A DNA stretch of 64,000 nt. Origin: Papaver somniferum (lineage: Eukaryota; Streptophyta; Magnoliopsida; Ranunculales; Papaveraceae). Positions 8,364 to 64,000 of the stretch are shown one piece after another. A program made the position numbers and the translations under genes. How positions within the stretch are numbered: position 1 is the stretch's first letter; each line of letters opens with the position of its first letter. Where the stretch lies: assembly GCF_003573695.1 (NCBI RefSeq), contig NC_039361.1:97900279-97964278 (forward strand), written 5' to 3'. Under the pieces are notes generated by a model. It searched no databases and was not told the origin of the DNA. It worked only from the letters and a program-made list of their open reading frames with translations.

Positions 8364-9101
8364 ATATGTATTTATTAGATTCATTAAATGAACATTTATC
8401 ATGAAAAATTAATTAATCATTCATCATAAGCAATTAATAGGACACTAATTAATAAAGTATTTATAATGGTTAGTTGAAAAAACCATGACCGTAGATTTAT
8501 GCCTCCTAGACAAATCTCGTCCGCTCTTTATCTAGCCTAACTTAGCCAAGCTTTGTTTTGTATCTTATACTAGGGTATGACCCGTGACGTGACAGCACGG
8601 ATTTTGTTTTGTGTTTTTTATTTTATTTTTTTGTGCTGATAAGCATATCAATAAATCCAAGTTTGAAGCATTTATGGAACTGGAATCAGATAACATATAA
8701 AGAATTACTAAAGATTTTACATCGTTAATTGCAACCTCATTTCATAGTTTAGACATAAGAAGAGATGTTAGTAAGAGTTTAAATGCCAATTTTTTTTGGT
8801 TACGGCTGCCATAATTGTCAATTTTGTTACAGCTGCCATAGTCGCTTCAACCTCCGAATTTCCTGAAGAGCCTCGTTCTTCAAGCTCCTTTCATAATCAT
8901 CCAGTATTTTGTTATGCCTGTTTACCAAATGACAGAAAAACAACCACTAATTTGTTCAATTGGTTAAAACTAAAAGAACTACTGTATTTCTTTGTTGTCT
9001 AACCAAAAAATGACATTTTTTCCTTTTGTTCTGCTTCTCAAGCATAACCAAAAAAGAAAGTCATTTTCTTATGTTTTCGTTTTTTAGTTTGACCGACCAA
9101 A

Positions 9102-24432: not shown

Positions 24433-24511
24433 GCCTAAAAATCAGTATTCCTTCCTGTTTGTACCCACTAAATATGGTGCACGTGCTAGGCGCACGGTGT
24501 GTCCCATAAAT

Positions 24512-24870
24512 AAAAATGGCTTATTAAAGAAGCCCGGCTGGGTTATCAAGGTAACCCAGTGGTTTATTAAGGAAACCAAAAATGACTTATTAAAGAAGCC
24601 CGTCTGGGTTATCAAGGTAACCCAGTAGTTTATTAAGGAAACCAAAAATGGCTTATTAAAGAAGCCCGTCTGGGTTATCAAGGTAACTCAGTGGTTTATT
24701 TAGGAAACCAAAAATGGCTTATTATAGAAGCCCGGCTGGGTTATCAAGGTGACCCAGTGGTTTATTAAGGAAACCAAAAATTGCTTATTAAAGAAGCCCG
24801 GCTGGGTTTATTAAGTAAACCCAGTGGTTTATTAGGAAAACCAAAAATGGCTTATTAAAGAGGCCCAATG
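24512..24870. repeat. 66-bp LTR minisatellite (5' LTR)
   Basis: Each unit reads AAAAATGGCTTATTAAAGAA, then GCCCGGCTGGGTTATCAAGG, then TAACCCAGTGGTTTATTAAG plus GAAACC. The pair CTGGGTTA / TAACCCAG forms an 8-bp stem in every unit. The last units diverge (GGGTTTATTAAGTAAACCC). Corresponding units are at 45943-46370 in the 3' LTR. Confidence 0.9.
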
Positions 24871-25233
24871 GTTTATTATGGAAACCATTAAAGATAAATA
24901 CAAATCTCAAAGGGATAAATATAGATCTTTTGAGATAATTATGAATCTGGGGAAGATAAATTTTCATCTCTCAAGATATATCCAGATCTATAAAGATAGA
25001 TATAGATCTTCTTGGGTAAATGCAAATCTTGACAAGATAGACATGAATCTTTCAAGATGTGTACAAATATGATGAAGATAAACATGAATCTTCCAGGATG
25101 TATGCAAATATTGGGGAGATAAGTACAAATCTAAGTGGTTATTTAAGATAAATGCAAATCTCATAAGATAAAGGTAAATCTTGGTGGTTATTTGAGATAA
25201 CTACAAATCATAACAATAAGATTTGTTTTCTGT

Positions 25234-25243
25234 CTATAAATAG
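25234..25243 (+). promoter_or_regulatory. LTR TATA box
   Basis: CTATAAATAG about 215 bp before the LTR end, with the same sequence at 46728-46737 in the 3' LTR. It is the likely retrotransposon promoter. Confidence 0.6.
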
Positions 25244-25458
25244 AGGCTGAAATCCAACTCAAAAGGTACACAATCACTATTACTTTTCTCCTCTAAAAAA
25301 TACCTGTTTAAAGCTCTCTCTGACTTAAGCATCGGAGTGTCTTTGCAGGTACCCTCTCATCTTTCATCAGCATTTCTGGAAAAATAAAGCAACGGTGGAG
25401 ATTCGATCAACATACGCAAATCTCGAAGATTGTTGGAGTGATTAATTTTGCACCAACA

Positions 25459-29242: not shown

Positions 29243-32200
29243 AAGGCTGGCAATGGATGACAGATATCCGGATTCTGTTTCCGATTATTCGAGATCCTAG
29301 AGGATTTTATCCATTATATCGGATACCGGATATCCGAATCCGATAACTTGTCGGATATTTCCTCCTTAACCTATCGGAATCGGATTGGGCTCTATCCGAT
29401 TGGTTAATATCCGATAGGGTAGGGGCGTACTAGTAATTTTAACATACCAATAACAGTGTCGAGGAGTCGAGAGAAGAGAAGAGAAGACATTTCCCTTTTA
29501 TTTTTTTCTTCTCCTCACTATGTTCTCAGTCTCGCTTCCCCCTCTCGATTAATCACTCAGTTCTCACTTCTCCAATAATTAATCTCTCAATCAGGTATTG
29601 ATTCGCTCCCCCTCTATGTTGTTAATGATTTCTCTTTTAATTTTTTCGATTTCTATGTTCAATTCTTATGAAATTAGGGTTTATGTGTTGCAATAAAAAA
29701 ATTAGGGCTTCTGTATGGATGAAAGATTTGAGATGGGTTTAAACTGAACTGGAATATGAGGCCGAAGAATAACTTGATACTGATAGTTAGGGGTTTGATT
29801 TTTCTATATCAGTTCGATCTAAATCCCTCCCTCTTCTAGGGTTTTCACTTTTCAGTTTGATTTTTCTAATTGATTCTCTAGAACAGATCTTTCTGTTTCA
29901 TGTTTGAATATAACCCATTGAAGTGATTGAATGATTTCTTGGTCATATAATTATTTGCTGGGTTCAATTTGATTTTTGTTTTCTAGGTTTGTGTAAATTG
30001 ATAGTAATATCTGGAAATTCAGATAATATCTATTAGAACTTCTAGAGAAGTTTAGGATACACAAGGGAGGGTCTGTGTAAGAGTCCTGTTCTTTTTTGTC
30101 TGTGCTAAGTACTGTGGGTGTAGATGGATGCTCGTGTTAGTTTTGGTTGTACTGTTGGTAGTCCGTTTTATAGTATATAAGGATGGGATGAATACTACAT
30201 CTTCTTTATGATCGTGTTCTCGTTTACATGTTCCTGATAAGCTTCCGTTGGGTCCTTTTCGTTAGATGCTTGCTAATGTCTACTGTATACGATAAGATGC
30301 TAGGATCCCATTGGTTGCCCTTTGTTGTCTAACCAAACTAATCAGTCCCACCCCTTTTCTACTGTTGTTTTGTAGTAAGTATACTAGGGCGCATTTATGT
30401 AAGCTTTTGCACTGTGCTTCTACTGTTAATTTGTGGACGTTAAAGATTTTAGGCCGACCATTTGCCCTACTGTAGGAAATCTTGTACATTAAGGGACTTA
30501 TCTGTGCGAGCGTGCTATTGTTTTATTTGTGACTTGAAAATGTGTACAGTTTTAGTTTGCACAACTAGGTACAGGATGATAATTTGAAGTAAAGGGGTTT
30601 TTCTTTGGCCTTTAGATGCTACATTTATGGTAATAGTCAGGATACGATACCCCATATTCTGTATAGTTCTGTCGCAGTGAGATAATTTGGAATTGTTTTG
30701 GAGGGCTATTTATAAACTTGCGAAATAGAATAATTATGGAAGCTTAGATGACTGGAGGTTGTGCAAAGAGGGAATTATGGTTTATTAGAAACAAAATTTG
30801 ATTCGAAGCTCTTCACTCTTTAACCTAATGTGAGTATGTTTAAGGCTAAAATTATATGATTTGCAAGTATTCAATTTCTTCGAATTGGGTATCAGGAAGG
30901 TGGTGAGCTCCTCCTGCCCTGCGGCTGCAGGTTGTGATGTTGCAAAAAGGGGTAATCCAGGAAATGTTGAGTATTCTTTCTTGTCTTACAGTACTTATTC
31001 ATTTTCTATCTCAAGCATATTGAATTCCTGCGTATACATACAGCTGGCTCAAGTGTTCTGAACCTTTCAGGATAATTTGAACGTTTCCTCATGTAATACA
31101 ACTTAAACTTGCTTAGTCAGCTTAATCAGCTTTGCATACAACTGAAAGGTTGAGCATATAACAACTAGTCTTACGCATTTTAGTTGAAAAACATAGGCAT
31201 TCCTTTCTTTATGTGTTTTGATGGTGGATATGCTTATGCCGAAATATCTGCTTGGGGGATTTCCTTAGAAGTGTTCTATAATTTCGAGTGCAATATTTCC
31301 TTAGAACTGTACTCTGTTTACTCTGCAGCTCCCTTTGTTTTCAGTGTAGACATTATTTCCCTTAACTGAATAGAAAAATGTCGTGGTAGTTTTTATGCCT
31401 ACATGGTATATACGCCAGAGAAAGAATGTCTGCATGCCTGGCAACTTCTGCAGGTTTTCAATCTTCACCACTCAGAAAATAGCCAAGTGTGTTTCTCCAA
31501 ATGCTTGCTTCAGTACAAACTTATTTCAACTGATTGCATACTAACCATGTTGGTGTTCTGATTGTGGCTGTTAGTTCTCTACCCTCATTGTTGCTCTCCT
31601 TTATCTCCCTGCACCTTGTTACCTCTGTGAATTTTCAGATTGCATATCTTTTGCTTGGTTTGTATGTGGGTATGTGTGTTGCACTGTTGCTTATAGTGGT
31701 GAAAGCTTTGAGAAACTGAAATGTTGGATGTCAGAATTTTCTAATCAAGTGATTCTTTGTGATTTGTGAATGCAGATACGGAAAACGTGGACTGAAGTGA
31801 AGCTGATGCAATGATACAACATGCCAGGCGGCCAAGCAAGATCACACTAAGTTTCACTACTCACTAGCGTGTTGACATTGTTAGCCTCTGTGACCGTTAG
31901 ACATTGTTTTCTTCTTTTTTTAGCTTTATTGTAGCCTGTTGTGTACTTTCTTTTGCATTCTCTGGACTGGGAGTAAACTCTTTAACTCACATTGTGCTTG
32001 TGTGGGTTTGTACTTTTCACAGAACATTTTGAACTTAAAAAAGACAAAGACTTTGTTTTTTTCAAGCTTTTAATTTTTTTTCCTAGTTATCGGATTTTAA
32101 TCAGTTAAAATCCTATATCCGGTGCTTAACCTTAACCTTATCGAATTGGATTTTTTGATATCCGTCGGATGTTATCGGATATCCGATAATTCTTAACCTT

Positions 32201-32253
32201 AACCTTATCGGAACTGCCAATATCCGCCGGATATTTATCCGTTGCCAGCCTTA
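29243..32253. mobile_element. Non-autonomous hAT-like element, 3.0 kb
   Basis: The inverted ends AAGGCTGGCAATGGAT (left) and TAAGGCTGGCAACGGAT (right, reverse complement) are flanked by an exact 8-bp duplication TTTCTGGT (29235-29242 and 32254-32261), the hallmark of hAT insertions. Both subterminal zones (29265-29420, 32085-32245) are crowded with ATATCCG/CGGATAT motifs in both orientations. The interior has a C/T-rich leader-like stretch (29480-29600) and T-rich intron-like DNA, but no transposase frame. Several small ORFs (30280-30489 minus, 31184-31369 plus, 31534-31719 plus) have no recognisable domain. Confidence 0.85.
29265..29420. repeat. ATATCCG subterminal motif cluster (left)
   Basis: At least six ATATCCG/CGGATAT occurrences, including the palindrome CGGATATCCG, in about 150 bp. 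A matching cluster is at 32085-32245. These are likely transposase-binding repeats. Confidence 0.75.
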
Positions 32254-32705: not shown

Positions 32706-33298
32706 TTAATATTTGGCATTAAGATTATCCGTTTTTAATTAAGTTAGTATAATCATGACAAACCTAAGTTGATTTTTAAGAGAGCAATGAAATTTGTTAA
32801 ATTGTGTTTTGTATTATTGGAATTAGAGGTTCCGGGTGCTGAAAAGGTCATTGAGCTTATGTTAGATATTTGCTTTAGAAACTTGCTCAACATGTCCTAT
32901 AGCGGGCCACCGTTGATTAGAAGCCTAAAATACCCATTCCAATACAACATAGAGGCATTTCCTCTTTAGTCCACTAAACCCGATCCATCTTAATCCCTAG
33001 TCCAACGGGGCAAACAATTTAATCGCTAGTCCAAAAAGGTTTGAAAACAGTAAAATTACTGTGCTAACCCTAATAACACGCGTGTCAGAGTCACAAACAG
33101 ATTAGGCAGAGAGAAAAAACACGCGTTATTCAGTTTCTCCTAGTTTTCATCGACCTTTTTTAGTTTTCATTCTTCTTCATCTACAGTTTTTCATTCTTCA
33201 GAGAATACAAAAATCAAAACTAGGTCAGTTCATCTTCTTTATTCAAAATCGAGATCTTCTTCTCCTAAATCGAAAAACGAAATAAAAAAACAAACCAG

Positions 33299-33540
33299 AT
33301 GTGTTTCATCTTCGTCAAAACCAAAACCAGGCATCTTCTTCATGAGATTCAATTGAAAGTTTCCAATCGAAAAACAAAATCAAAACCAAAAATGGTTACC
33401 AATCGAAAAACTAAACAAATAATTACGGAAGTAATTGTGGAAGAAAGTTCTTCATGCTCAAAAAGTAGAAGAAAAATTGTTGATGATTCAAACAACAAAA
33501 AGAAAAGCCTGCTTCTAATTCACCAACAGTACATAATATA
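33299..33540 (+). CDS. Putative first exon, lysine/serine-rich, unrecognised
   Basis: After a T/C-rich leader-like stretch (33110-33290), an open frame runs from 33299 (second Met at about 33391, in MVTNRKTKQIITEVIVEE). It encodes a basic, Ser/Lys-rich segment (SCSKSRRKIVDDSNNKKK) that could be a nuclear-localisation region. Beyond about 33540 the frame runs into the palindrome array and is unlikely to be coding. This may be the start of a captured or transposon gene. No family is recognised. Confidence 0.3.
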
Positions 33541-35435
33541 TCCAACAACAGTTTATGTTTTTTTTTTTATGTATCACATGCTTTTATGCTTTCATGTATT
33601 ACATAAGGTAAAAGATTTCATACATATTAGTATGTATTACATTGTTTTTTTTATGTATTACATGCTTTCATTCAGTAAAAATATTGGTATGTAGTGCATG
33701 TTGCTTTCATGTTTTTTTATGTACTAAATGGTTCCATGCTTTCCTAAATATTGGTATGTATTGCGCTCTTTCATAAAAAATGTCCTAAAAAAAGTACATG
33801 TCAATATGTACTAGGTAACCCCTAATTCATGCTTTGAATAAGTATCAGTGCATATCAACATGTACATATGTATTAGGTACATATCAATATGTATGCTACC
33901 TTGCAAAAGAAATAATATAATTGTTTTTGAGCTTATTGATATGTATTGATTGTGCTTATTGATATGTACTGATGGAGAAAACTGATTTATGATGATCGGG
34001 TACTAACAATTTGTCTTTGACCAAATGAACCTGTACATATTGATATGAATTTGGGGTTCATATTTTTTTGAGAATTTTTGTTACAACATTACTGCTATGA
34101 ATTTGGGGTTTTTGTCTGTGTAGTGGAATATTGGAAGTTTCACAATTTTTTTCAAGTTTTGGATATATAAATTTAGGAGTTTTCAGATTTCTGCTAAACC
34201 CTTAGTTCATGCTTGAATACATATAAATATGTAGTAAGACAAAGAGTGATTAGTTGATGATATGTACTGTATAAAATCCTAGCATAGTTTATGCTTGAAC
34301 ATATCCATATGTACTTAGGGAAAAGTGATTCGTTGATGTAATACATGTCAATATGTATCCTTTGAATACCAAAAAAATAATATGTAGTATGTGTTAATAC
34401 AATACATAGCAATATGTATTGTAGTGTTGAATACAAGTAGAACTCATCAGCGCTGTATATCAATATGTATTATCGAATACTTGGATTGCATATGCATCAT
34501 GTACATATCAATATGTATTGTCGAATACTAATGGATATTTGGTTGTACCGTGAATAACTGGATAGTTTTGATAGTGTCAACTGCCAGTACGTATTTGCCT
34601 GTATTGCGAAAAATGAAGTGCATATCACCATGTACTTGTTCATGTATTGTTGTTACTTTGTTTTCTTATGAATACCCTTGTTGATTATGCATGTGATATG
34701 AAATAAAAATCCATATGTACTGGTAAAAATTACAGTACATATTTGGTTGTACCGTGAAAAACTGGATGGTTTTTGATAGTGTCAACTTCCTGTATTGCGG
34801 AAAGTGGGTGGTTTTATTTTTCTTTCAATACATAATTGTTGCAACATTTTAGTTCTAACAATATGTTTGGTATTGCATGCCAGGTCACTTATTGTACTAC
34901 AATAACAAGGCATAATATTGGTTTCAGTAAACTCATGCTGAAAACTCGAATATAACAAAATGTTTGGGATTTCTGCCAAAAAAGGTGTTGCTTATAATTT
35001 TAAAAATACAATCTAATATGTGTAATGTTTTCAGTTTTATTTTTGTTGATTTTTTATACCAATTTTCTATATGCTCCTAGCATACATATCAGTGTGTACT
35101 GTTAAATTCTTGATATGTACTGCTTACCCCCTTCTACTGCATGTTTATGTATGATCTTACAATATATATCCATATGTACTGTATATATGTTGTGTATAAT
35201 CCTACAGAACATGCTGATATGTACTGCTAAAAGACCTAGTTTGTAGTTGATATATGTAATGTTGATGTACTTTGTTCTTGAATTAGTACATATCAACATG
35301 TATTGCTGGGTATATATATGACCACTGCAATAAATATGTTCTGGGTAAACCTTTTTATGCTTATTATGTACTATAGGTAAACCCCCAATACATATTGATA
35401 TCCAAAGCACACTATCTTGACATTGTTCATTCTTG

Positions 35436-35545
35436 TTGCGTTACCAGCTTTGGTGCAGGGTTCCTTGGTTCTTCATGATACGCCTGCATGGTTGGGATCA
35501 GTTGGGAAGGCTTGGCAGATGGATCTAGAGGGGCCATCAAGTAAA
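35436..35545 (+). other. Exon-like segment in the MULE interior
   Basis: This less AT-rich stretch has an open frame (ALVQGSLVLHDTPAWLGSVG, then KAWQMDLEGPSS) that ends near a possible donor AAG/TAAAAT. The family is not recognised. Another open stretch at about 36003-36105 reads ASDHVNILVGASNYAAVALT before a stop and could be a terminal exon on the same strand. Confidence 0.25.
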
Positions 35546-36793
35546 ATTTCTTTTCCTTTAAACATACTATGATCTTTTAACATCTTAAATTGCACAAAAT
35601 CACTATGTGCAGTAGTTGGTATAATTAGAGACATTATGTAACTCGTGATAAACCAAATACCAGTGGTCGTCTCTTCCTAGTTTTGGACACTGTGCAACAT
35701 CATACTTGATTTGGAAAACTTCTTTAGGAGTATTAACAAATGTTTAGGAGTATTAACAAATGTTTATATGCAGGGGTGCAATTGGGCAGCCAATAGATTG
35801 TTAGAATATTCCTATTTGTGTTGTTGAATTACATATTACAAAAGGAAAATAATGTGTAAAAACAATACATATTGGTACGAACTGACAGACTGTACGTATC
35901 CATCTGTACATATCAACATGTACAGTTGGATGTTAGTTACATATCATTATGTACTTTAGTTTTTGATGCTTGTTTATTATGTTGATACGAGAGGACCTGA
36001 AGTAGGAGACCATACAACTCCTTGAACTGGAGATTGCTTCCGATCATGTAAATATTCTTGTTGGAGCTAGTAATTATGCAGCGGTGGCGTTGACTGAGGA
36101 CTAATAATCTCCATTCCTTTGCTCTTCTCCACCTGTATTAGTTGCTGCTAATTCGAAATATTTACTTATGATAGCATATTGTAACCCGACTCCTGATTTT
36201 TTGCGACATCTCTGTACTCTTCCTTAGTTGAAGCTTTTTATAAACAACTTATCTTTTACTTGTTGCTTCAATTTGTAAGTAGTGCAGCAGATATGCAATC
36301 GATTTTTAAGCAGTGAAACAAATATATATTCTAGTTTTGGTAAACACTGCAGTGAAGCAAATATGTACTCTAGTTTTGGTAAATAGTGCAGCAGAACTAA
36401 CGTTGAGTTACTACTTACTAGAAGGAAACAAGCAGCGGAGCAAGTAGATATACTGAATTACATCATATGTAACAAAAATTAATGATCATTTTTGAAATTA
36501 TTTCATTGTAAATTGTTGTATTTGAAATTTCATCGTAAATTGTCGCATTCTTCATACAATGTTTCTGGCCGTTAATATATAAATTTTTTTTGTCAGTATG
36601 TAATTTGCAGAATACATTGTCCTCTATTGAAGTGATCCAACAGTATATATTGTGTTGTATTGAAAGAAAAAAAAAAGTCAATTTTGATAGTACCAAAGGA
36701 AGTACATATTGGTTGCACAGAAATATACATAGTCGGTCAAATTGATTTTGATATATTTTATTTAATTCAATCCGGCAACACAGAAAAAGCATA

Positions 36794-36995
36794 TCACATT
36801 CCAATCAAACTGCAAAATGTCGCAGCAATATAGTTTTCTGGGCGTGAATTTTTTGCAGCCAAAATAGTTTCAGATTGCTGTCGAAGCATTCTTCCATTAG
36901 CACTGCCCATTCTTCCTTCATAATTTATGGCCTCATCCGGGGAAGTCCCCTCTTTAAACTTTGCCTCAGCAGCATCTGCAAAGAAGAAAAAAGCG
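36794..36995 (-). other. Putative exon of a captured minus-strand gene
   Basis: On the minus strand a TTCTTTGCAG acceptor (just above 36995) opens a frame reading DAAEAKFKEGTSPDEAINYE, then GRMGSANGRMLRQQSE, continuing until a stop near 36794. A second minus-strand piece (38585-38670) ends at a TCTAG/GTATAT donor. Its phase allows direct joining to this exon. Its peptide is SPGKPGNLASGIGGKAKASP, then NLSDLIL. A 26-bp exon-like insert with splice signals lies between them (about 37425-37450) but would shift the frame. No protein family is recognised. Confidence 0.35.
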
Positions 36996-38584
36996 CAGAA
37001 TAAACAAACAATGAGCATAGGAAAAAGCACAGAATATACACATGTACTGACTGAAGCCATAGTATATATTGATATGTACTGAGTGAAACTCAATGAAAAG
37101 AAAAATCGAGACACTTCAGCTCACAAAAAATACAAAATGTTTTTCAACAATGGAAAAACAATACATATACACAAGTATTGAATAAAAACTGACAAAACAT
37201 AGTTTCCAAAGTGTGACCAAGGGAAAGGTAGAATCTACATTTAGTGTTGGAACCAAAACTATCAAGTGGTGTGCAAGGTTAATGCTAAAATACCCTTAAA
37301 GTTTGAGAGGTTAATGGTCTAAATACTCACAGTAGCACTTGGAAGGATGTACAAGGTATCACATCAATATATTGATAGTACTGCGAAATAAATGAACTGG
37401 AAAAGAAATTAGAAGTAAACATACCTGAATTTCTCCCCCTTGTCCTATACCTGTAATGCCGAAGAAATGAAATATATCAGGTACTCATCGTAAACACTCC
37501 ACGCAAGAAGGAAATTCTATACTTTTCTTATAATTTTCAGGCTCACTGTATGGCTAAGAGACATCTTGGTAATGCTGACTTGAACAAAATCAGAAATCAA
37601 TAACTTAAAACAAAAACCGCAAACCAAATGGTCAAGAGAAACTCGTTTAACTGCACATTTTTAAATTAGATAAACACATTTTAAAATTATCTTTATCACA
37701 ATACATGATGAGGAGGATTTATGGATCCAAGAGCCAAGCAGCAGGAGGAGGATTTCTGGATCCATATTGAGTGTCAATAAAGTACATATACACATGTATC
37801 GAAGAAGAAAAATAGTACATATATACATGTATTGAAGAAAACAAGTACGGAAAAACCAGTACATATTTTTATGTACAGAGTGAAAAGCACGGTAAACATG
37901 GATATGTACTAAGTAAAACCACAATATATATGGATATGTACCGAGTGAACACCTGACTACTGGAATATCTTCTCAACTCAAAAATACATTTGCCAGAGAA
38001 CTTGGAACAACTCTCTCAAGAACCAAATATCTTCTCAACTCAAAAAAATCCACTCAATTCATTAATAATACATCAAAATATCCCGTCAACACTCACAAAT
38101 ATGTCAGAATATCCACCAAATATCATAAAAATGAATCATTGTTCAAAATAGAACTACTAACATTATGATTATCTAGTTAGTGATCAAGAATTCTATATAG
38201 GACGATCATAAAATAAAGAATCAAAGTCCAAATAAGACCAGAGTGGATGAAAATTAGGTCATAATGCCAATCGAACTATTTTAAGAAAATTCTAGTGGGG
38301 TATGTAGACTAAATCATGCTACTCATCATTCTAAATCCACATTTAGGATCGGCATATAGTATTAAGTGATCAATAAATTATAAGTACAAGACTGGATCTT
38401 AAATATTTGTGGGAAAAAATCGAAACAATTTACACTAAAATGATGAGAACGTTAAGCTGATTACAAATATCCTCTCTAATTTCAAATCAGATAAATGAAC
38501 TGAAATAAAAATCAATGATTTTGATTTTCAATAAACCCTAAAATGAAATCTCCAGAAAAGTTTATTTTGAAACAACAAATATAC

Positions 38585-38670
38585 CTAGAATCAAATCAGA
38601 GAGATTAGGGGAAGCCTTAGCTTTTCCCCCGATGCCGCTAGCGAGATTTCCTGGTTTCCCCGGCGATAAT
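38585..38670 (-). other. Putative upstream exon of the same captured gene
   Basis: A minus-strand open frame, GC-richer than its surroundings, with a good donor at its 3' side (38583-38584 GT). No in-frame ATG is seen upstream, and a stop lies about 45 bp before the recognisable part, so the gene start is missing or non-canonical. Confidence 0.3.
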
Positions 38671-38926
38671 TTTTTCTGATTACACAGAGAGGTCTTCTTC
38701 TAGTCTATAGACTGAAAGAGAAAGTAAAACAGAATTTGGTTCGCAGCTTATGCGGAGGGTAATTTTTCCCTTTAGAAATTGACGTTTATATCACTCGCAC
38801 GTGTACAGGGCTTGTGGATAAGTTTTTTATTCCAAAAACATGTTTTCGGACCACCTAGTAATTGTTTTCTGGTGCTGGACTACACAGTAACCGGTTCTTC
38901 CTACAGTGGATTAACTAGTAATTCCT

Positions 38927-40716
38927 AGTACAACATATCTAACAAACAGTCCCTCTTACTTTACACGTACGTATATCATCGAGTGCAAGCTATAGGTAGT
39001 TTAGGAAATCAGAAATCAAAGGTTAGATTCAAGTAAGGAAAATCTTAGGCGGATTTTTTTTATGCGGTCACTTTTCTTTTTTTTTGGTGCTAACCAAGAA
39101 AATCGGCAACCAAGGTTGGTTATGTTTGGTCTGGGCGGCGACATAATCAGTACCATCCAAAATAATAAAATTTCAAGGGATCGGACAGACGTCTATATAG
39201 GACATATAACCAAACGATGCATGTCGTAGGATGCGATCACAAACCGGCGGACATAAATATCTCCCCAAAATTATATGGGACGGCCCGATAGAAACCTCGC
39301 CAAAATTATATTTGTTCATCTTGATTTTTTTTTTGCTTGCGGTTCCACAAATATTGGTAAGGTCAGGATTAAGGAGCCCTTTCGGGAGGGGACATGTTCT
39401 CAACCATTTACCAGTGCACCCTCTATTGTAACCGGTTACGGATGCATCCAATTGTTTTTTCCTATTTTAAGCTGAAGAATTTAACATACCTAAAAGCCTG
39501 AACACTCGTACATGTGAGGTAGCAAGAATAGGAGTAGCATTATTTTCAGAAAGATAAAGAGAACAGCATCACCATGTAGGCATATAAGAAAAACTTAATA
39601 ACTTCGGGACTTTTTCTTGCCTACCTCTTCGTATCCTCTCTCTTATTCGAGTTGTTTCTAGTGTAAAATTCTCTCCACCTCCAAGTATATATAGCCTATA
39701 TATTGTTTCTTTTATTAGTTTCTTAATTACTACACTTGGATGCCGTATTTCACCAACATAAAACGACAGTAAGGTTAGCCGTGTTAGCGGCTTTAGGTTC
39801 GTGCAACAATGACGTTTGGTCCGGCCCTTGGCATAATCTCCACCGTCAAAACTAATAAAATCTCAGCCACATATATCTTGCAAACTCCAACGGATGGTCG
39901 GATATATACCTAGTAAACACCAATGAACGGACGGATAGAAATCTCGCCAACACATATTTCCGGCCGCCGGATGGCCGAAATCAAGAGTCGTCTATTATCC
40001 AAGACAGACAACACTTCTTTTTATAATATAGATGTGTTCTCGGTTTTTATAGAAGGGAACGCAACTGTTGGTGACTTCGTTATGTTAGCTAGCGGCTGGA
40101 AGCTATTGGAACCGTATGAAGCGTGACGCTCAATTTGTGATCGTCACACCAAAAATTTAAAAGAAAAGTTTGGTCGGATATCGACCACCCAAGAAAGAAC
40201 TGCGAAGGTCCTGTCAAAGAGGGATTCAATCGGGTTGTGATATATTGTTTATCCTACAGAAGATGACTTGGCAACGTTTACACATATGTCAAGGAGGCTC
40301 TGTAAGGAAGTTAGTGAAGTTAGAAAGGTTGATACTGCTCTCGTAATATAGATATACAAGAATGCATTAGGTTATAACGTGCTTCGAATTTATATCTCCT
40401 AACAGTTCAACCAGTTAGAAACCTCAAAGAGTTGAGCGACAGGGCCGGCGGGTATGGGGGAGCTGAAAAAGAAAAGAAAGCAAAGTTAACACGTACGTCG
40501 AAAGGGTCTGGAACCGAGGGACACGCTACACCAAGATAATATTTCGATGACGATTCCGAAAAGAAAAATCATGATAGACCCAGAAATAGAGATGGCAACG
40601 GAAAAGATACCTAATTATAATCCCTGAATCATCTAGCAAGTGAGGAACGGATATCATAGATCTATTTCCTTTTTCATCTGGAGGCGTCTTTGCTATTTGG
40701 AAAAATCTCTACGGAT
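38927..40716. other. Interior of the 22.5-kb element, no recognised gene
   Basis: It contains spaced direct repeats around GAAACCTCGCCAAAATTATA and GAAATCTCGCCAACACATAT (39290-39310, 39930-39960) and several CGGACGGAT-like motifs. Short ORFs on both strands near 39173-39475 have no known domain. No gag or pol signature is seen. Confidence 0.35.
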
Positions 40717-40721: not shown

Positions 40722-42673
40722 TGTAATACATGTATTCTTAGCTACTGTTTCGGGTCGGGTTATATCCGATTTAGTTAACTTTGTGGCTTAGGTTGTTGTT
40801 CCTTAACCTTAGCCTAGGTGGGTGGTTTAAACTAGAAAGGCTACAAGTTAGTGTGAAAATATAATAATCAATAATAAATAAAATCAAGGAAAAATGAAAA
40901 GATAATTAAAATATTTAAGAAAAATAATATTTAATATATAGGTTTTCTATTAGTGTAAATGGAAAAGAATTTTAGAAGTTAGAAAAGTCTAAGGAGAAGA
41001 AGAAAGAGATGGAGTTAGAGATTTTTAGAGAAGAAATCAAGAGGAGTTTGTAGCAATTGAGAGGTAGAATGTTTAATTACTTTCTCTTTGTGTTTTTCTT
41101 TGGTAGACTTTGATTTTATATTTGTTTAATCTTATTTAATTAGAGTTCTGAAATTTATATGTATAATTTTATGACTCTTATTGATGAGCGGACTTTGGTT
41201 ATTGGTAGATAACATAATTGGGTATCTCTAGTTAAATTTTGAGAATTTTCCAATGTAACTTCACCGTTGAAAGTTTCTTGTAATTTGGATGATAGTTTAT
41301 GAAAATTCTGGACAGTTTCGTTTTGTTGTTTTGATGTTCTTAGGAAATCTTAATTATTTTAAAACGATTTGAGGTGTAAACAAAAGTTGTATATAAGTTT
41401 CTTATCTTTCACTATGATTTTGGTTTGCTTACTTTGAGATTAATATGAATTTATGGTGAATTGTTTGGTAATAACATGTAATCTGCCCAGTTTTTAGAAT
41501 TCCATTGTAAACTCAATATATTTTATTTGAACCGTTGGTTCGGTGTGAATTTTGGGTATGTTGTATATGAATGTGTCAAGAATGTTCCTGTAAAATTTGA
41601 GGATGACCATATAAAGTTATCACCATGAAATATATAATATAATATGGCTGCAGTTACCTTGTTTGCATAAATGCAAGAAAGAAATTCATGTTGTTAAGCC
41701 ATGGTTGCTTGTGTTGTTTCTGAAAATGATTTATAAAAGGAAATGAGTTCATGTTTTACCGTTATATGGAATATGTTTCATGATAACGACGGGTAATGAT
41801 CCTCGAGAGTTAAATGGGTAATGATCCCCATGGGAGCTTGTGTTTCCCGACCATCGATGGCGGCTGTCCGTGCCGGTAGACGATAGGTGGTGTACGAACC
41901 AAGGTTTTCGTACTGTGAATGAAACGAGTAATTATCCCCGAGATAATATGGGTACGATCCCCATAGGAACTTTTGTTCCTGATCATCGATGGAGGCTGTA
42001 TGTGCCGATAAACAATAGGTGGGTGTACGAACCAAGGTTTTCGTACTGTGAACTCATGGTCTGCCTGTGACTATATTAATATGTCAATAGATATGTTGAA
42101 TCATTGATGAATGACTTGTTAACAATTATTTTTGTATTGCAAACTCATAGTTTGAGGTGACTTATGAATATGGGAATAATGTGCTTGGTATCTAAATTAA
42201 ATGCGTTGTTGGAAACATAACCGGTGTTAAGAAATTATTTGTGAAATTCAAATGAATGAATTGTTAAAAACAATATTTTTCTTGTGAATTGAAAAGTTGA
42301 ATCCTAAATGGATGATTCGATAAATGATTTGTTGATAATATTGTAAATGTTGTGAACTCATGGTGTGTTGGTGAAATATTAATTTGTGAATCATGTGTTG
42401 AAAAATGATTTGTTGGAAACATAATTGGTGTTATGAACACGTGTGTGAAGTCTTACTGAAATGTAATTTGAAATAATATGTTCGTTGAAAATGTTGTTAA
42501 AGATGATTAGAGAATTTATATGTTTAAACTAATGTTAGAAAGGTTAAATTACGTTTGTTGTGATAAGGAAATTATAAGAGTTATATGCATAAGTCTCTTT
42601 TTTCCGACCCGTAACGCTTCGAGTTCGGATCTACATATGAGTTTGATCCTATTCCGGAACTCGGGGTGTTACA
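40722..42673 (+). repeat. 5' LTR of the Tekay-like element
   Basis: 1952 bp. It contains a duplicated cassette of about 130 bp (41846-41930 and 41977-42060) with CGATGGCGGCTGTCCGTGCC-like and GTACGAACCAAGGTTTTCGT motifs. Relative to the 3' LTR it lacks about 440 bp near 42450 (equivalent to about 44657-45100). Substitutions between the two LTRs are frequent, so the insertion is not recent. Confidence 0.9.
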
Positions 42674-42925: not shown

Positions 42926-45318
42926 TGTAATACCCTGTATTCTTAGCTATTGTTTTGGGTTGGGTTATACCCGATTTAGTTAACTTTGTGGCTTAGGTTG
43001 TTGTTCCTTAACCATAGCCTAGGTGGGTGGTTTAAACTAGAAAGACTACAAGTTAGGGTGAAAATATAATAATCAATAATAAATAAAATTAAGGGAAAAT
43101 GAAAAGATAATTAAAATATTTAAGAAAAATAATATTTAATATATAGGTTTTCTATTAATGTAAATGGAAAAGAATTTAGAAGTTAGAAAAGTTTAAGGAG
43201 AAGAAGAAAGAGATGAAGCTAGAGATTTTTAGAGAAGAAATCAAGAGTAGTTTGTAGCAATTGAGAGGTAGAATGTTTAATCCCTCTCTCTTTGTGTTTT
43301 CTTTTGTATACTTTGATTTTATATTTGTTTAATCTTATTTAATTAGGTTTCTGAAATTTATATGTATAATTTTATGAATCTGATTGATGATCGGACTTTG
43401 GTTATTGGTAGATAACATAATTGGGTATCTGTAGTTAAATTTTGAGAATTTTCCAATGTAAATTCACTGTTGAAAGTTTCTTGTAATTTGGATGATAGTT
43501 TATGAAAATTCTGGACAGTTTCATTTTTTTGTTGTTTTGATGTTCTTAGTAAGTCTTAATTATTTTAAAACGATTTGAGGTATAAAAAAAAGTTGTAGAT
43601 AAGTTTCTTATGTTTTATTATGATTTGGGTTTGATTAATTTGAGATTAATATGAATTTATGGTAAATTGTTTGGTAATAACATGTAATCTGCCCAGTTTT
43701 TAGAATTCCATTGTAAACTCAATATATTTTGTTTGAACCGTTGGTTTGGTGTGAATTTTGGGTATGTTGTATATGAATGTGTCAAGAATGTTTCTTTAAA
43801 ATTTTAGGATGATCGGATAAAGTTATAACCATGAAATATATAATATAATATGGATGCAGTTACCTTGTTTGCATAAATGCTTCAAAGAAATTCATGTTGT
43901 TAAGCCATGGTTGCTTGTGTTGTTTGTGAAAATGATTTATAAAAGGAAATGAGTTCATGTTTTACCGTTATATGGAACATGTTTCATGCTAACGGCGGGT
44001 AATGATCCCCGAGAGTTAAATGGGTAATGATTCCTATGAGAGCTTGTGTTTCCCGACCATCGATGGCGGCTGTCCGTGCCGGTAAACGATAGGTGGTGTA
44101 CGAACCAAGGTTTTCGTATTGTGAATGAAACGGGTAATTATCCCCGAGATCATATGGGTATGATCCCCGTAGGAACTTTTGTTCCTGACCACCGATGGAG
44201 GTTGTCTGTACCGATAAACGATAGGTGGGTGTACGAATCAAGGTTTTCGTACCGTGAACTCATGGTCTATCTGTGACTATATTAGTAAGTCAATAGATGT
44301 GTTGAATCATTGATAAATGACTTGTTAACAATTATTTTGGTATTGCAAACTCATAGTTTGAGGTGACTTATGAATATGGGAATAATGTGCTTGGTATCTA
44401 AATTAAATGCGTTGTTGGAACATAACCGGTGTAAAAAATTTATTTGTAAAATTCAAATGAATGAATTGTTAAAAACAATATTGTTGTTGTGAATTGATAA
44501 GTTGAATCCTAAATGGATGATTCGATAAATGATTTGTTGATAATACTGTAAATGTTGTGAACTCATGGTGTGTTGGTGAAATATTAATTTGTGAATCATT
44601 TGTTGAAAAATGATTTGTTGGAAACATAATTGGTGTTATGAACACGTGTGTGAAGTCAAATTGAATGAAATGTTGAAATACTATTCGTGTTATGAACCGA
44701 TGTGTTGAAACTCAAATGGATGAAATTTTGAAAACGTTAATAGTAAATACCATTGATGTCGTGAACGCATGTTTAAAATCTTAATGAGATGATTTGTCAT
44801 AAATAATATTGGTACTATGAATTCATGATTGAATAGATGAACGAAATGATTTATTGAAAATAATACTTGTGTTGTAATCTTGTTGGTTCGATATATTATA
44901 ATTGATTGCTCGTAATCGTGTTGTATACCCATGTTGTATGCTACTTGACTCATTAATATTGTTATGCATGTTTGAGATTGGGAATGCATTCTAATGAGCT
45001 GTCATCTCACCCCAATTTACACCCTTGCAGATTTGTTAGAGTTGCGCAGCGGAAGCTAGGAATGTGTATCTTAGTGACTGCATTGTTTTCTAGTAAATGT
45101 TTGAAATGTAATTTTAAATAATATGTTCGTTGAAAATGTTGTTAAAGATGATTAGAGAATTTATATGTTTAAACTAATGTTAGAAAGGTTAAATTACGTT
45201 TGTTGTAATAAGGAAATTATAAGAGTTATATGCATAAGTCTTTTTTTTCCGGACCGTAACGCTTCGAGTTCGAATCTACATATGGGTTTGACCCTATTTA
45301 AAAACTAGGGGTGTTACA
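42926..45318 (+). repeat. 3' LTR of the Tekay-like element
   Basis: 2393 bp, same start and end as the 5' LTR, with the duplicated cassette at 44052-44135 and 44183-44265. The extra 440 bp (about 44657-45100) are probably ancestral and lost from the 5' LTR. Both breakpoints lie in similar GAAATGTAATTT-type sequence. Confidence 0.9.
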
Positions 45319-45886: not shown

Positions 45887-46950
45887 TGTTTGTACCCACT
45901 AAATATGGTGCACGTGCTAGGCGCACGGTGTGTCCCATAAATAAAAATGGCTTATTAAAGAAGCCCGACTAGGTTATCAAGGTAACCTAGTGGTTTATTA
46001 AGGAAACCAAAAATGGTTTATTGAAGAAGCCCGGCTGGTTTATCAAGGTAACCCAGTGGTTTATTAAGGAAACCAAAAACGGCTTATTATAGAAGCCCGG
46101 CTGGGTTATCAAGGTGACCCAGTGGTTTATTAAGGAAACCAAAAATGGCTTATTAAAGAAGCCCGACTGTTTATCAAGTAACCCAGTGGTTTATTAAGGA
46201 AACAAAAAATGGCTTATTAAAGAAGTCGGCTGGTTATCAAGGTGACCCAGTGGTTTATTAAGGAAACCAAAAATGGCTTATTAAAGAAGGTCGGCTGGGT
46301 TTATTAAGTAAACCCGGTGGTTTATTAAGAAAACCAAAAATGGGTTATTAAATAGGCCCAATGGTTTATTATGGAAACCATTAAAGATAAATACAAATCT
46401 CAAAGGGATAAATGTAGACCTTTTGAGATAGTTATGAATTTGGGGAAGATAGATTTTTATCTCTCAAGATATATCCAGATCTATAAAGATAGATATAGAT
46501 CTTCTTGGATAAATGCAAATCTTGACAAGATAGATATGGATCTTTCAAGATGTGTACAAATATGATGAAGATAAACATGAATCTTCCAGGATCTATGCAA
46601 ATATTGGGGAGATAAGTACAAATCTAAGTGGTCATTTAAGATCACTGCAAATCTCATAAGATAAAGGTAAATCTTGGTGGTTATTTGAGATAACTACAAA
46701 TCATAACAATAAGATTTGTTTTGTGCCTATAAATAGAGGATGGAATCCAACTCAAAAGGTACACAATCACAATTACTTTTCTCCTCTAAAAAAACCTTGT
46801 TTAGAGCTCCTCTGACTTAAGCATCAGAGTGTCTTTGTAGGTACCCTCTCATCTTTCATCAGCATTTCTGGAGAAATAAATCAACGGTGGAGATTCGATC
46901 AACATACACAAATCTCGAAGATTGTTGGGGTGATTAATTTTGCACCAACA
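45887..46950 (+). repeat. 3' LTR of the 22.5-kb element
   Basis: 1064 bp with about 6.5 minisatellite units (45943-46370), the degenerate AGATAAAT zone and a TATA box at 46728-46737. It ends GCACCAACA and is followed by the duplicated CTTCC. Confidence 0.9.
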
Positions 46951-55676: not shown

Positions 55677-57529
55677 TGTTAAATCATAGCTCGTTTGAAC
55701 CCACCAAGTGTTGGTATGCTAAGTTTAGTTGTCATATTTTAGTATGAAAACTCATCTAGAGTCGCTTGATTGAATACTAGAGTGAACTTCGTTTAGGTTA
55801 TACTAGAAAGTCTAGGAATGTTGAGACGTACAAGTATTATTTCGAAGACCTGAAGAATAAGAAGAAGTAACGACTACAACGACGATATCATCCTTCCACT
55901 TGAGGTTAATAATATTGACTTGATCTTGTTTCCATTCCTAACGTATCTTTCAAGTCGTGCTATATTGAAGACATAACATGCGAAGCTGTATATATTGTGT
56001 ATAATACTCTAGTGATGAGACTTGGTGATAACAATATGATCAGAGTATAAAGGAAACCATATTACGAAGTATAAACGCTTATCTTTTGGAACTTCTAAAT
56101 ACGACATTGACATAATCTACTGTATATAGTTATTTGATTATGTGTGCATTATATAGGTGTGATTTCATCCTAAAAAATGATGTATCTTTACATTAGTTTA
56201 AGGAAGTGGATGTATTGTTTTCATAATCAAAGAGAAATCATGATTGGTCTTGTTAATCATTGAATATCTTTTGTATGACCAGTGGAAGATGACTATGGTA
56301 GAACTTATCTTAACTATGTTGAGACTTGAGGTATAACCGGTCATAGCCTATATAATATAGCTAGTTGGAACCGGTCACAAGTTATATTGAAAATCAAGGT
56401 GTGAAAAAGCGGGGGTCTAACAACCACACCAAATATTTCGTTTAGGCAATCTCTATGGACTAACTCCAATATAATTCCAAGAGAATCAACTAGACAGTCA
56501 GACTCAATCAAGGAAAATATATCCAAGAGTTATATCTCAATTTCTCAAATCAATCTCCAATGGAACAGATAAAAATCTGTGAGCCGGATTAATAAGAGAA
56601 ATAATTTGGATGGTACCAAAGACCAATATCCAAGCGTCAATCAATTTCAATCAACAACCAAAGGTTGGATTCATTAATTGATTGAACTACGCACAACTGT
56701 GATATTTCAATTATATAAAAATATAATGAGGAAAATAAATAACACAGACACAAAAAATTTTGTTAACGAGGAAATCGCAAATGTTGAAAAACCCCGGACC
56801 TAGTCCAGATTTGAACACCACACTGTATTAAGCCGCTACAGAATCTAGTCTACTACAAGTTAACTTCGGACTGGAATGTGGTTGAGCCCTAACCAATCTC
56901 CCACAGATTAAGGTACAGTCGCGTTTCTTACGCCTCTATATCCCAGCAGGACTCGACGCAGTTGATTCCCTTAGCTGATCTCACCCAAAACCAAAAGTTG
57001 CTACGACCCAAAGTTGAAGACTTGATAAACAAATATGTCTCGCACAGAAAAGTCTATTGAATAGATAAATCCGTCTCCCACAGAAATACCTACGAGTTTT
57101 TGTTCCGTCTTTTGATAAATCAAGGTGAACAGGAACCAGTTGATACACCAGACTTATATTCCCGAAGAACAACCTAGTAATATCAATCACCTCACAATAA
57201 TCTTAATCGTATGGTAGCGAAACAAGATATTGTGGAATCACAAAGAATGAGACGAAACGCTTTGTGATTACTTTTTATCTTACCTATCGGAGATTAAATC
57301 TCGATTAAATCATAGAGAAGATAGTACTCAATAGATAGAACAAAGTAAGATCAGAACACGCAACTACAGAGAAAATAGTTGGGTCTGGCTTCAGAATCCC
57401 AATGAAGTCTTTAAGTCGTTAACCTATAATGGTTTTAGGAAAAACCTAGGTTAAAGGAGAATCGACTCTAGTCGCAACTAGTATCATACTGGAGGTGTTG
57501 GGATTAGGTTTCCCAGTTGCTAGAGTTCT
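55677..57529 (+). repeat. 3' LTR of the SIRE-like copia element, interrupted
   Basis: It begins TGTTAAATC after the polypurine tract and runs at least 1.85 kb to the insertion of the next element at 57530. The remainder of the LTR should lie beyond the 3' LTR of that element, outside the window. The region near 56780-57300 contains long minus-strand frames with no recognisable domain. Confidence 0.7.
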
Positions 57530-58936
57530 TGATAGACGCATTTATGTGTCTAATATAGCCCAATTGTATATATTGTTAGTACCCATTTTTGTACTTATTA
57601 TGGTATTTTATTTATTTGTAGGTGTTTTTGGAAAAATAAGCTTTTGGAGCGAAATTGGCTCGAAAAGTTGTTAAAGGCACCAGGGAGGACATTTTCTATC
57701 CGGACTCTCGCTTTGGATAAGGGGTAACCCATTTCTAGGCATATGCTAAAGGGACTCCCAGTCTGGTTAAAGGGACACCCTTCTTCACGTTCAAATAATC
57801 GATTTTGGCGGGAAACTGGTTCACGTCTGCATGAATTTCTCTGAATGATTTTGGACGTGATTTCCTCTTGGATTTTCATCGGACCAAGTTGGTTTGGGCT
57901 TGGTTTGATCGTGTAGGAGAAGTGGTGGGCTTGGTTGAGTTAAGAGAAAGAGATTTTATCTCAAGTTCACGAAACAGAGACGCAAAATACTCGGGATTCT
58001 TTTGTGGGTTTAGGAGATTACGTGATATCTGGGAAAGTCTATTAACGGATAGGATGATATGCTGCTATCTCTGGAAAGAGTTTTCAAACACTGGAACTCT
58101 ATGTTAACGCGTAACAAAACAGAAAAAAAAAAAGGAAAAGAAAAAGCCGTGACTTTGAGAGAGAATAAAGGGAAGATTTGGTGGCCCTGGATGGTATAAA
58201 AAGAGTTTTTCGAGTCTTAGAGAAGTTTATCAAGAGTTTTGGGTCGAGCCAGAGCCAGGAGGAGCGAACAAGAAGGAAAAACAGCAATGTTCACCTGCTG
58301 CTGCTGCTGCCATTAAAAAGCTTCAAGAACACGAAGAACAGACTCTCCAGGGCAGACTTATTTTCAGCACGTCAACACATCAGCGAATGTCGCAGTTAGC
58401 TGCAGTTATCTTTGTCGTTCTTCTCTGGACGCCTTCTGTGAGTCTCAGAAACAATGTTTATAATTTTTAACTCTTTTAATCATACTTTGAGCATCAAATA
58501 TATTTGAGAATATGATTATTATGATTAGCTAAACCCCAATACTGGGATGATGGAAGAAGCCATATTTCACGCATATAATAATTTATTTAATTTTTTATGA
58601 CTTCTTGCACTTTTTATAAATAGTTTTATGATTTTTCTTAATTGATTGTCATTTCTTTTGATGGTTTATGCTTGGTCTTAGTACTTTTGATATGCCATGC
58701 TTTCGATTTACAGTTAATCTTCTAAAAATCTACCTTGGCAAGAATTAGAGTCCCTATTTTTATGTGAGCTATAATTGTTTGGAATAAATATATTGATTAT
58801 GTGAATGATTATGGTGGAATCCTGAGTCCTAGTGTCTCTTGATCCTGTGAAACGTTTGTATATATTTTTGTTTTTAAATCTTTACAAGTCCGAGCAACGA
58901 ACTCTTATTTACCGCATTAAAATTATTACTACAACA
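57530..58936 (+). repeat. 5' LTR of the Athila/Tat-like element
   Basis: 1407 bp, starting TGATAGACGCATTTATGTGTC-like sequence (TGATAG) and ending ACTACAACA. It has a TATA box at 58195-58203, a CTG microsatellite at about 58298-58312 (longer than in the 3' LTR), and frames on both strands that are also present in the 3' LTR. Confidence 0.9.
58195..58203 (+). promoter_or_regulatory. LTR TATA box
   Basis: TATAAAAAG within GGATGGTATAAAAAGAG, repeated at 63737-63745 in the 3' LTR. It is the likely start signal of the genomic transcript. Confidence 0.6.
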
Positions 58937-63060: not shown

Positions 63061-63074
63061 AGTTTGGGGGTATT
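63061..63074 (+). other. Polypurine tract of the Athila/Tat-like element
   Basis: AGTTTGGGGGTATT immediately before TGATAGACGC. The AAGTTTGGGGG form is typical of Athila/Tat elements. Confidence 0.75.
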
Positions 63075-64000
63075 TGATAGACGCATTTATGTGTCTAATA
63101 TAGCCCAATTGTATATTGTTAGTACCCATTTTTGTACTTATTATGGTATTTTATTTATTTGTAGGTGTTTTTGGAAAAATAAGCTTTTGGAGCGAAATTG
63201 GCTCGAAAAGTTGTTAAAGGCACCAGGGAGGACATTTGCTATCCGGACTCGCTTTGGATAAGGGGTAACCCATTTCTAGGCATATGCTAAAGGGACTCCC
63301 AGTCTGGTTAAGGGGACACCCTTCTTCACGTTCAAATAATCGATTTTGGCGGGAAACTGGTTCACGTCTGCATGAATTTCTCTGAATGATTTTGGACGTG
63401 ATTTCCTCTTGGATTTTCATCGGACCAAGTTGGTTTGGGCTTGGTTTGATCGTGTAGGAGAAGTGGTGGGCTTGGTTGAGTTAAGAGAAAGAGATTTTAT
63501 CTCAAGTTCACGAAACAGAGACGCAAAATACTCGGGATTCTTTTGTGGGTTTAGGAGATTACGTGATATCTGGGAAAGTCTATTAACGGATAGGATGATA
63601 TGCTGCTATCTCTGGAAAGAGTTTTCAAACACTGGAACTCTATGTTAACGCGTAACAAAACAGAAAAAAAAAAAAGGAAAAGAAAAAGCCGTGACTTTGA
63701 GAGAGAATAAAGGGAAGATTTGGTGGCCCTGGATGGTATAAAAAGAGTTTTTCGAGTCTTAGAGAAGTTTATCAAGAGTTTGGGGTCGATCCAGAGCCAG
63801 GAGGAGCGAAGAAGAAGGAAAAACAGCAATGTTCACCTGCTGCTGCCATTAAAAAGCTTCAAGAACACGAAGAACAGACTCTCCAGGGCAGACTTATTTT
63901 CAGCAGCGTCAACAGCATCAGAGAAGTGTCGCAGTTAGCTGCAGTTATCTTTTGTCGTTCTTCTCTGGACGCCTTCTGTGAGTCTCAGAAACAATGTTTT
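63075..64000 (+). repeat. 3' LTR of the Athila/Tat-like element (cut by window end)
   Basis: This is a near-identical copy of 57530 to about 58475. Differences include a 2-bp TA deletion near 63116, one CTG pair fewer near 63838 and a few substitutions. Confidence 0.9.

What the first reader, a model, noticed from the sequence alone, without database searches (positions are those of the whole stretch)
33600..37945. More than 30 scattered copies of the palindrome TACATATCAATATGTA inside one DNA element
This is the strongest unexplained pattern in the window. Units are short (16-18 bp), self-complementary, irregularly spaced rather than tandem, confined to the element bounded by 32964 and 38917, and run through both exon-like and intron-like parts. 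Many copies deviate by one base on one arm. Options are a spreading micro-hairpin, a dense protein-binding array, or template-switch amplification.
Basis: seen in the sequence. Interest (0 to 1): 0.8.

Follow-up and report, generated by a model that had tools for sequence, protein, structure and literature searches.

The report
Palindrome arrays marking poppy Mutator transposons
A 22-letter DNA palindrome repeated dozens of times inside one jumping gene turns out to mark a family of Mutator-type jumping genes in what is very probably the opium poppy genome, and most likely serves as a landing array for a protein that these jumping genes themselves encode.

Summary
The window element holds 33 copies (at most 4 of 16 mismatches) of a palindrome, consensus CARTACATAT-CA-ATATGTAYTG; at most 3 mismatches: 27 inside, 0 in the rest of the window, shuffle mean 0.12. 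The element, 32952-38928, is a non-coding Mutator-like element: 9-bp target duplication, degenerate TIRs, three further full-length copies at 97-98%. The 16-mer occurs 4,008 times in the 2.7-Gb genome, 2 in the reversed control. Of 20 loci picked by motif hits, 19 carry the same TIR family; the twentieth resembles a coding member. Seventeen elements form seven groups without masked-interior homology, all with arrays. Larger members encode a MuDR transposase and, on the opposite strand, a gene with an Ulp1-like domain; sites avoid coding parts. Arms do not compensate copy by copy in the window element. Best reading: binding-site array for a dimeric, element-encoded protein, comparable to VANC target arrays of Arabidopsis VANDALs. 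Binding and anti-silencing are inferred; DUF1985 and DUF287 were not detected in the second gene, and selective constraint on units is only suggested.

The parts
32943..32951 (.). target-site duplication TACAACATA, left copy
   Evidence: exact 9-bp direct repeat; 273 of 20000 random window pairs share any 9-mer
32952..38928 (.). 5,977-bp non-autonomous Mutator-like element carrying the array
   Evidence: three other copies match 1-5977 end to end at 97-98%
32952..33069 (+). left degenerate terminal inverted repeat (about 115 bp)
   Evidence: alignment to right end scores 20, 8 of 2000 random pairs reach it; family TIR profile hit 32956-33069, 5e-23, but the window's own ends seeded that profile
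33618..34754 (.). array block 1: 17 palindrome units
   Evidence: unit list
35080..35407 (.). array block 2: 5 palindrome units
   Evidence: unit list
35448..35540 (+). exon-like segment without units (marked by hand by splice-like signals)
   Evidence: sequence reading, open frame; no Pfam family, only a weak chance-level PDB match, E 0.18
35863..35956 (.). array block 3: 4 palindrome units
   Evidence: unit list
36794..36975 (-). exon-like segment without units (marked by hand)
   Evidence: open frame; nothing above cut-off in Pfam or convincing in PDB; no homologue in two protein searches
37060..37180 (.). array block 4: 2 palindrome units
   Evidence: unit list
37780..37943 (.). array block 5: 5 palindrome units, partly in 32-33-bp tandem repeats
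   Evidence: unit list; tandem rows 37779-37848 and 37870-37953
38808..38928 (-). right degenerate terminal inverted repeat
   Evidence: family TIR profile hit 38925-38808, 2e-22, with the same seed caveat
38929..38937 (.). target-site duplication TACAACATA, right copy
   Evidence: exact 9-bp direct repeat

Best explanation
The array is a set of binding sites, spread through the non-coding parts of a Mutator-like transposon family of (very probably) opium poppy. Each 22-bp palindrome is most likely read by a symmetric (dimeric) sequence-specific protein. The likeliest source is a coding family member: the transposase, or more probably the second gene on the opposite strand, which carries an Ulp1-like domain. 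The likeliest effect is the one known for VANC proteins of Arabidopsis VANDALs: binding many sites along the element removes DNA methylation and keeps the element expressible, in trans for non-coding members such as the one in the window. Shown here: array, element, family, coding members, non-coding placement, a subfamily with a different commonest letter pair at +-9. Inferred: that a protein binds it, which protein, that the coding members are autonomous, and that the effect is anti-silencing.
For: Array far above chance, with a sharp 22-bp edge. 4,008 exact 16-mers genome-wide against 2 in the reversed control. Of 20 loci chosen by motif hits, 19 have the family TIR; L067 has none in its 10 kb but is 93-96% alike to the coding element in L069 over long blocks. 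In the 13 loci and the window where both TIRs were found, 172 sites (<=3 mismatches) lie in 47,095 bp between TIRs and 6 in 146,905 bp outside, those 6 in L080 beside a single TIR of another element; the 7 loci without a TIR pair were not counted. Seventeen elements form seven groups (link: 10% of interior, units masked), all with arrays. Commonest pair at +-9: C..G in the L062 group, 14 of 37 distinct units; G..C in window, L073 and L074, 25 of 63. Coding members carry MuDR DBD, MULE, Transposase_mut and SWIM domains and a second gene with Peptidase_C48, 1.3e-6 in L066. Sites centred in coding-like parts: 2 of 21 and 1 of 23, P about 1e-4 each, intervals set by hand. Core identity between relatives 405/446 against 1272/1460 in flanks, P 0.02, four pairs pooled. 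VANC21 motifs likewise lie in VANC/VANB introns and upstream of VANA (PMC5735166 section 9).
Against: No binding or methylation data. The constraint signal comes from one pair (L069-L066, P 0.004); window against L082 and L084 shows none (P 0.49), window against L073 runs the other way (23/28 against 80/94), and a global alignment of L069-L066 gives P 0.21 over 9 sites. The simulation looks favourable but assumes neutral equilibrium, which a recent array violates, so I do not count it. The subfamily change at +-9 could be one ancestral change copied with tandem units. Window, L073 and L074 do share array-rich stretches at 67-82% before masking, so the groups are not wholly independent. No DUF1985 or DUF287 in the second-gene pieces; profile comparison with poppy DUF1985 proteins gives probability 0.1, with very shallow alignments. 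Five DUF1985 loci of 4 kb have at most 1 site each and no family TIR.
Confidence: 0.5

Rival explanations
1. Binding sites for another purpose: the element's transposase binding inside as well as at the TIRs, or a host transcription or silencing factor that the elements recruit or suffer.
For: Array and TIR family travel together; the transposase has a MuDR DNA-binding domain and SWIM finger. Subterminal repeats bound by transposition proteins are known from CACTA elements (recalled; search listing and abstracts).
Against: In the coding copy L069 sites run from 1352 to 9039, mostly in introns and other non-coding parts, rather than clustering near the ends.
Confidence: 0.25
2. Neutral by-product: the palindrome spreads as a tiny hairpin or through slippage and local segment duplication, and decays without function.
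For: Spacers share residual same-strand homology; neighbouring units are more alike than shuffled order gives, P 0.0025, although similarity does not fall with distance overall, P 0.36; tandem repeats of 23 and 32-33 bp contain units; the consensus folds to -8.9 kcal/mol as RNA; in the window element units change about as fast as flanks; small excess of short flanking direct repeats in 3 of 28 tests; in the coding group arms agree at +-9 more than shuffled, P 0.026. Selfish palindromes are known in organelle genomes (PMC2670323, listing and abstract only).
Against: No arm compensation in the window element (226 complementary pairs observed, 236 expected); elements with unmatched interiors carry the same unit while the surrounding DNA does not; core more conserved than centre and +-9, P 0.0017. 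Avoidance of coding parts fits either view.
Confidence: 0.18
3. RNA-level role: hairpins in element transcripts act in splicing, stability or small-RNA production.
For: Good copies can form an 8-9-bp stem; sites are mostly in non-coding parts of the genes.
Against: Stability varies from -0.9 to -8.0 kcal/mol over seven copies folded; arms do not compensate in the window element, and at +-9 the excess within groups is not significant overall, P 0.16.
Confidence: 0.07

Closest known systems
VANC target motif arrays of VANDAL Mutator-like elements (Arabidopsis)
   Same: Many copies of a short family-specific motif in introns and upstream regions of a MULE with transposase plus extra genes; motif variants differ between subfamilies; expansion by tandem duplication; VANDAL clade listed with 9-bp TSD and absent or short degenerate TIRs (PMC5735166 passages and section 9; PMC10398659 and PMC6446971 passages).
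   Different: Motifs named there are 8-9 bp (YAGTATTAY, AGTTGTCC, AGTTGTAC), and no word beginning with palindrom occurs in either paper's main text; here a 22-bp palindrome. DUF1985 and DUF287 of VANC not detected in the second gene.
Ulp1-carrying MULEs (Kaonashi/KIU genes; similar in grapevine, melon, rice)
   Same: Second gene with Ulp1 peptidase-like domain inside a MULE; a review says Ulp1-bearing VANC genes act on motifs in related elements (PMC13317346 passages).
   Different: Here TIRs of about 115 bp are still recognisable; no sequence comparison with KIU was made.
CACTA subterminal transposase-binding repeats
   Same: Short repeated motif bound by an element protein (recalled).
   Different: Subterminal there (recalled; listing and abstracts only); here spread through the interior of a Mutator-type element.
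Selfish palindromes of organelle genomes (Volvox and others)
   Same: Small palindromes scattered through non-coding DNA.
   Different: Organelle genomes there; here nuclear and tied to one transposon family in the loci read (listing and abstract only).

Membership tests
Mutator-like element (MULE) | 8-11-bp target-site duplication | tested here: met
   9-bp TACAACATA exact in window; of 15 elements with both TIRs, exact 8-10-bp repeats for 8 incl. window, some offset from the profile ends; one mismatch in 2, none found in 5
Mutator-like element (MULE) | terminal inverted repeats, or their degenerate remains | tested here: met
   TIR profile finds both ends of 15 elements, one end only in part for 4 (L070, L073, L074, L080); single or no TIR in the other 7 loci
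Mutator-like element (MULE) | MULE/MuDR transposase in coding members | tested here: met
   PF03108, PF10551, PF00872, PF04434 in L069; the window element has no tblastn match to these proteins at E 1e-5; intactness of the genes not checked
VANDAL/VANC anti-silencing system | short motif repeated in non-coding parts of the element | tested here: met
VANDAL/VANC anti-silencing system | element-encoded VANC protein with DUF1985/DUF287 | tested here: inconclusive
   Pfam scans of second-gene pieces show neither; DUF1985 occurs elsewhere in the genome, 149 matches among 150 scored of 1815 candidates; DUF287 0 matches but its control rang nowhere; remote homology not resolved
VANDAL/VANC anti-silencing system | protein binds the motif and causes loss of methylation | not testable with these tools
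   needs ChIP, EMSA, bisulphite data
Ulp1-carrying MULE (KIU type) | Ulp1 (C48) domain in a gene inside the element | tested here: met
   PF02902 28.8 bits against cut-off 20.7 in L066; 20.5 in L065 and 13.3 in L076, below cut-off
selfish micro-hairpin | arm-to-arm compensation that keeps the stem | tested here: not met
   226 complementary pairs observed, 236 expected in the window element; pooled over 17 elements only +-9 exceeds shuffling, within groups P 0.16 overall but 0.026 in the coding group

The most novel reading that the evidence does not exclude
Opium poppy holds a sequence-specific anti-silencing (or otherwise trans-acting) system of its own, in which an Ulp1-bearing protein without recognisable VANC domains reads a 22-bp palindrome as a dimer; both half-sites have switched together between subfamilies, and many otherwise different non-coding elements have joined by carrying the same TIR and array.
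Probability: 0.3. Interest if true: 0.75.

Novelty: new variant of a known kind. Interest (0 to 1): 0.6.

Why it matters
Sequence-specific anti-silencing by transposons is known in molecular detail from Arabidopsis (papers). A poppy MULE family with thousands of motif copies, coding members, and non-coding members that share mainly TIR and array gives a natural test of how such proteins and their targets co-evolve, and why a target must be repeated dozens of times. The palindromic form makes a structural prediction, dimer binding, that can be tested directly.

Tried and rejected
Chance in AT-rich DNA: rejected. Viral or bacterial origin: no support; 53 viral contigs hold one exact 16-mer each and at most 2 sites at <=3 mismatches, the exact 18-mer is in no viral contig, the 22-mer in no contig of the bacterial and archaeal collection, and 33600-37945 matches no plasmid or phage record. 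Known RNA family at curated thresholds: none. Micro-insertion with target duplication: no consistent excess, but 3 of 28 tests above expectation, e.g. 6 against 2.6 two-base repeats at +-11 and 3 against 0.8 four-base repeats at +-14. Helical phasing: neighbour R 0.07-0.21, no test made. Window element as carrier of a known gene: 16 of its 87 open frames of at least 35 aa were scanned against Pfam, none above cut-off; two exon pieces gave only weak PDB matches; one piece had no homologue in two protein searches, although that library holds poppy proteins. Motif letters in print: none of four long forms in 5.39 million open papers; subscription journals are not covered. simulation set aside because its neutral-equilibrium assumption fails; of the relatives aligned, L083, L085, L074, L081 and L086 were not pooled (unit against flank identity there: 0.905/0.936, 0.958/0.957, 0.861/0.748, 0.963/0.955, 0.986/0.983). 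Array as a mark of DUF1985 loci in general: not supported, 5 of 149 listed loci read. By eye the second-gene N-terminus resembles DUF1985 proteins, but the tools did not confirm it.
Full report
What was checked. A scan with up to two mismatches gives 26 rows (22 places, four matched on both strands), all inside the element; 100 shuffles of the window give at most 1. Allowing 4 mismatches gives 33 non-overlapping units. Positions +-10 and +-11 were not used to choose the units, yet lean to CA...TG (C 15, A 19, T 23, G 20 of 33); beyond +-11 the information falls to background. The unit is therefore taken as a 22-bp palindrome with a two-base centre. A blind scan of 14-mers in 6-kb blocks finds nothing comparable outside.

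What it sits in. A perfect 9-bp direct repeat TACAACATA flanks 32952-38928; about 1.4% of random window pairs share some 9-mer. The ends align as degenerate TIRs better than all but 8 of 2,000 random pairs. Searching the assembly with the 5,977 bp found three more copies matching base 1 to base 5977 at 97-98%, seven of 1-2693 or nearly so at 97-98%, and more distant relatives; 40 of 2,144 candidates were scored, so counts are lower bounds. The ends are therefore taken as exact. The element lies in an LTR retrotransposon at 24456-46950 with TSD CTTCC (read); its LTRs differ by K2P 0.049. The window element shows no transposase: 16 of its 87 open frames of at least 35 aa were scanned, none above a Pfam cut-off, and proteins of the coding members do not match it.

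Which genome. The LINE frame of the window matches 25 proteins; the best is unnamed, the other 24 are named Papaver somniferum. Three contig lengths of the assembly (216867838, 219560757, 204470928) equal contig lengths printed; contig C1 is 248497648 where one search prints 248500730. I take the genome to be opium poppy; its size is 2.715 Gb.

The family. The exact 16-mer occurs 2,071 + 1,937 times; its letters reversed, not complemented, 2 times. I fetched 20 regions of 10 kb from the first 100 listed places, all on one contig and favouring several hits. A TIR profile seeded from the window element finds the TIR in 19 of 20; the other, L067, is 93-96% identical to the coding element in L069 over long blocks. 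For the 15 elements with both TIRs (13 loci and the window), 172 sites lie in 47,095 bp inside and 6 in 146,905 bp outside; those 6 are in L080, beside a further TIR whose partner would lie beyond the locus. The 7 loci without a pair were dropped from this count. After masking units and trimming ends, 17 elements (three of them cut by the locus end) fall into seven groups at a link of 10% of the interior; every group carries the array. Before masking, the window element shares array-rich stretches with L073 and L074 at 67-82%. Five groups show GTACATAT..ATATGTAC or a one-letter variant, one group of six elements CTACATAT..ATATGTAG, and the coding group is mixed at +-9. Counting distinct units chosen by the core alone, C..G is the commonest pair at +-9 in the L062 group (14 of 37) and G..C in window, L073 and L074 (25 of 63).

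Coding members. L069, L075, L076, L066, L065 and L067 share long stretches of one element. No 10-kb locus holds both ends; overlap of L069 and L076 suggests about 11-12 kb (inference). L069 encodes a transposase with DBD_Tnp_Mut, MULE, Transposase_mut and SWIM domains. On the opposite strand lie successive open stretches that I read as exons of a second gene; one has the Ulp1 C48 peptidase profile (1.3e-6 in L066; 4.8e-4 and just under cut-off in L065, 0.074 in L076). A weak plant-mobile-domain match (0.01) is under cut-off. That these stretches form one gene, and that any copy is intact or autonomous, is inference. Of the sites, 2 of 21 (L069) and 1 of 23 (L076) are centred in coding-like parts that make up 51% and 41% of the sequence (intervals set by hand).

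Tests between mechanisms. Hairpin: in the window element 226 arm pairs are complementary against 236 expected when right arms are dealt anew. Pooled over 17 elements only pair +-9 exceeds shuffling (80 against 51.7); within groups the excess is not significant overall (80 against 74, P 0.16), though it is in the coding group taken alone (27 against 19.1, P 0.026). So most of the excess is a difference between subfamilies. This suits a symmetric protein better than copy-by-copy stem repair, but one ancestral change spread by duplication would look alike. Micro-insertion: no consistent flanking duplication, with 3 of 28 tests above expectation. Duplication: spacers show an excess of same-strand similarity and neighbours are more alike than in shuffled order (P 0.0025), without an overall fall with distance (P 0.36); part of the array grew by segment duplication, as reported for VANC targets. 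Constraint: over four pairs core identity is 405/446 against flank 1272/1460 (P 0.02), and core against centre and +-9 P 0.0017. Pair by pair the signal rests on L069-L066 (P 0.004) and is absent for L082 and L084 (P 0.49); for L073 it runs the other way (23/28 against 80/94); a global alignment of L069-L066 gives P 0.21 over 9 sites. I regard constraint as suggested, not shown.

Comparison with what is known. VANC21 binds YAGTATTAY, and its sites lie in VANC21 and VANB21 introns and upstream of VANA21, often in tandem repeats that differ between subfamilies (PMC5735166, passages and section 9). VANDALs lack TIRs or have short degenerate ones, with 9-bp TSDs listed (PMC6446971 passages). A 2026 review says that some VANC genes carry an Ulp1 domain and that such elements recognise motifs in each other (PMC13317346 passages); its source, which I recall as a 2022 EMBO Journal paper on eudicot Mu-like elements, is not held under the identifier I tried. 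The poppy family thus works like this system in layout. Membership is not shown at one point: DUF1985 and DUF287 were not detected in the second-gene pieces. DUF1985 does occur elsewhere in the genome (149 matches), but five such loci of 4 kb carry neither array nor TIR, and a profile comparison of the two protein sets gives no support, with alignments too shallow to decide.

Verdict. A real, strong pattern; a MULE family found wherever I followed the motif in the loci read, with coding members; most likely a protein-binding array, with a VANC-like anti-silencing role as the leading but unproven function.

Noticed in passing
24456-46950: LTR retrotransposon of about 22.5 kb, LTRs 24456-25458 and 45887-46950 with 66-bp tandem repeats inside them, TSD CTTCC, K2P between LTRs 0.049; own coding sequence not searched for in full.
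   Followed up: partly
29243-32253: hAT-like element (8-bp repeat TTTCTGGT at 29235 and 32254; ends AAGGCTGGCAA) nested in the same retrotransposon; family recalled, not searched.
   Followed up: no
57529-58459 and 63074-63999: Direct repeats of about 930 bp at 97.8%, possibly LTRs of a second, younger element cut by the window end.
   Followed up: no
40722-42479 and 42926-44684: Large tandem duplication at 94% containing 133-bp tandem repeats.
   Followed up: no
L062 1935-8404: Two 2.3-kb family members about 4.1 kb apart with the same flanking 9-mer ATTTGTGTA; exact-hit spacing suggests a longer tandem array of them on contig C1.
   Followed up: partly
G000 C9:19.22-19.44 Mb and C11:3.39-3.47 Mb: Clusters of DUF1985 matches in tandem, apart from many dispersed ones.
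   Followed up: no
window 34055-34794 (element 1104-1843): This array-rich stretch is matched at 86-93% at 15 other places over nearly its whole length and at two more in part (capped list), several with only TIR-like matches besides, as if array segments are exchanged between family members.
   Followed up: partly
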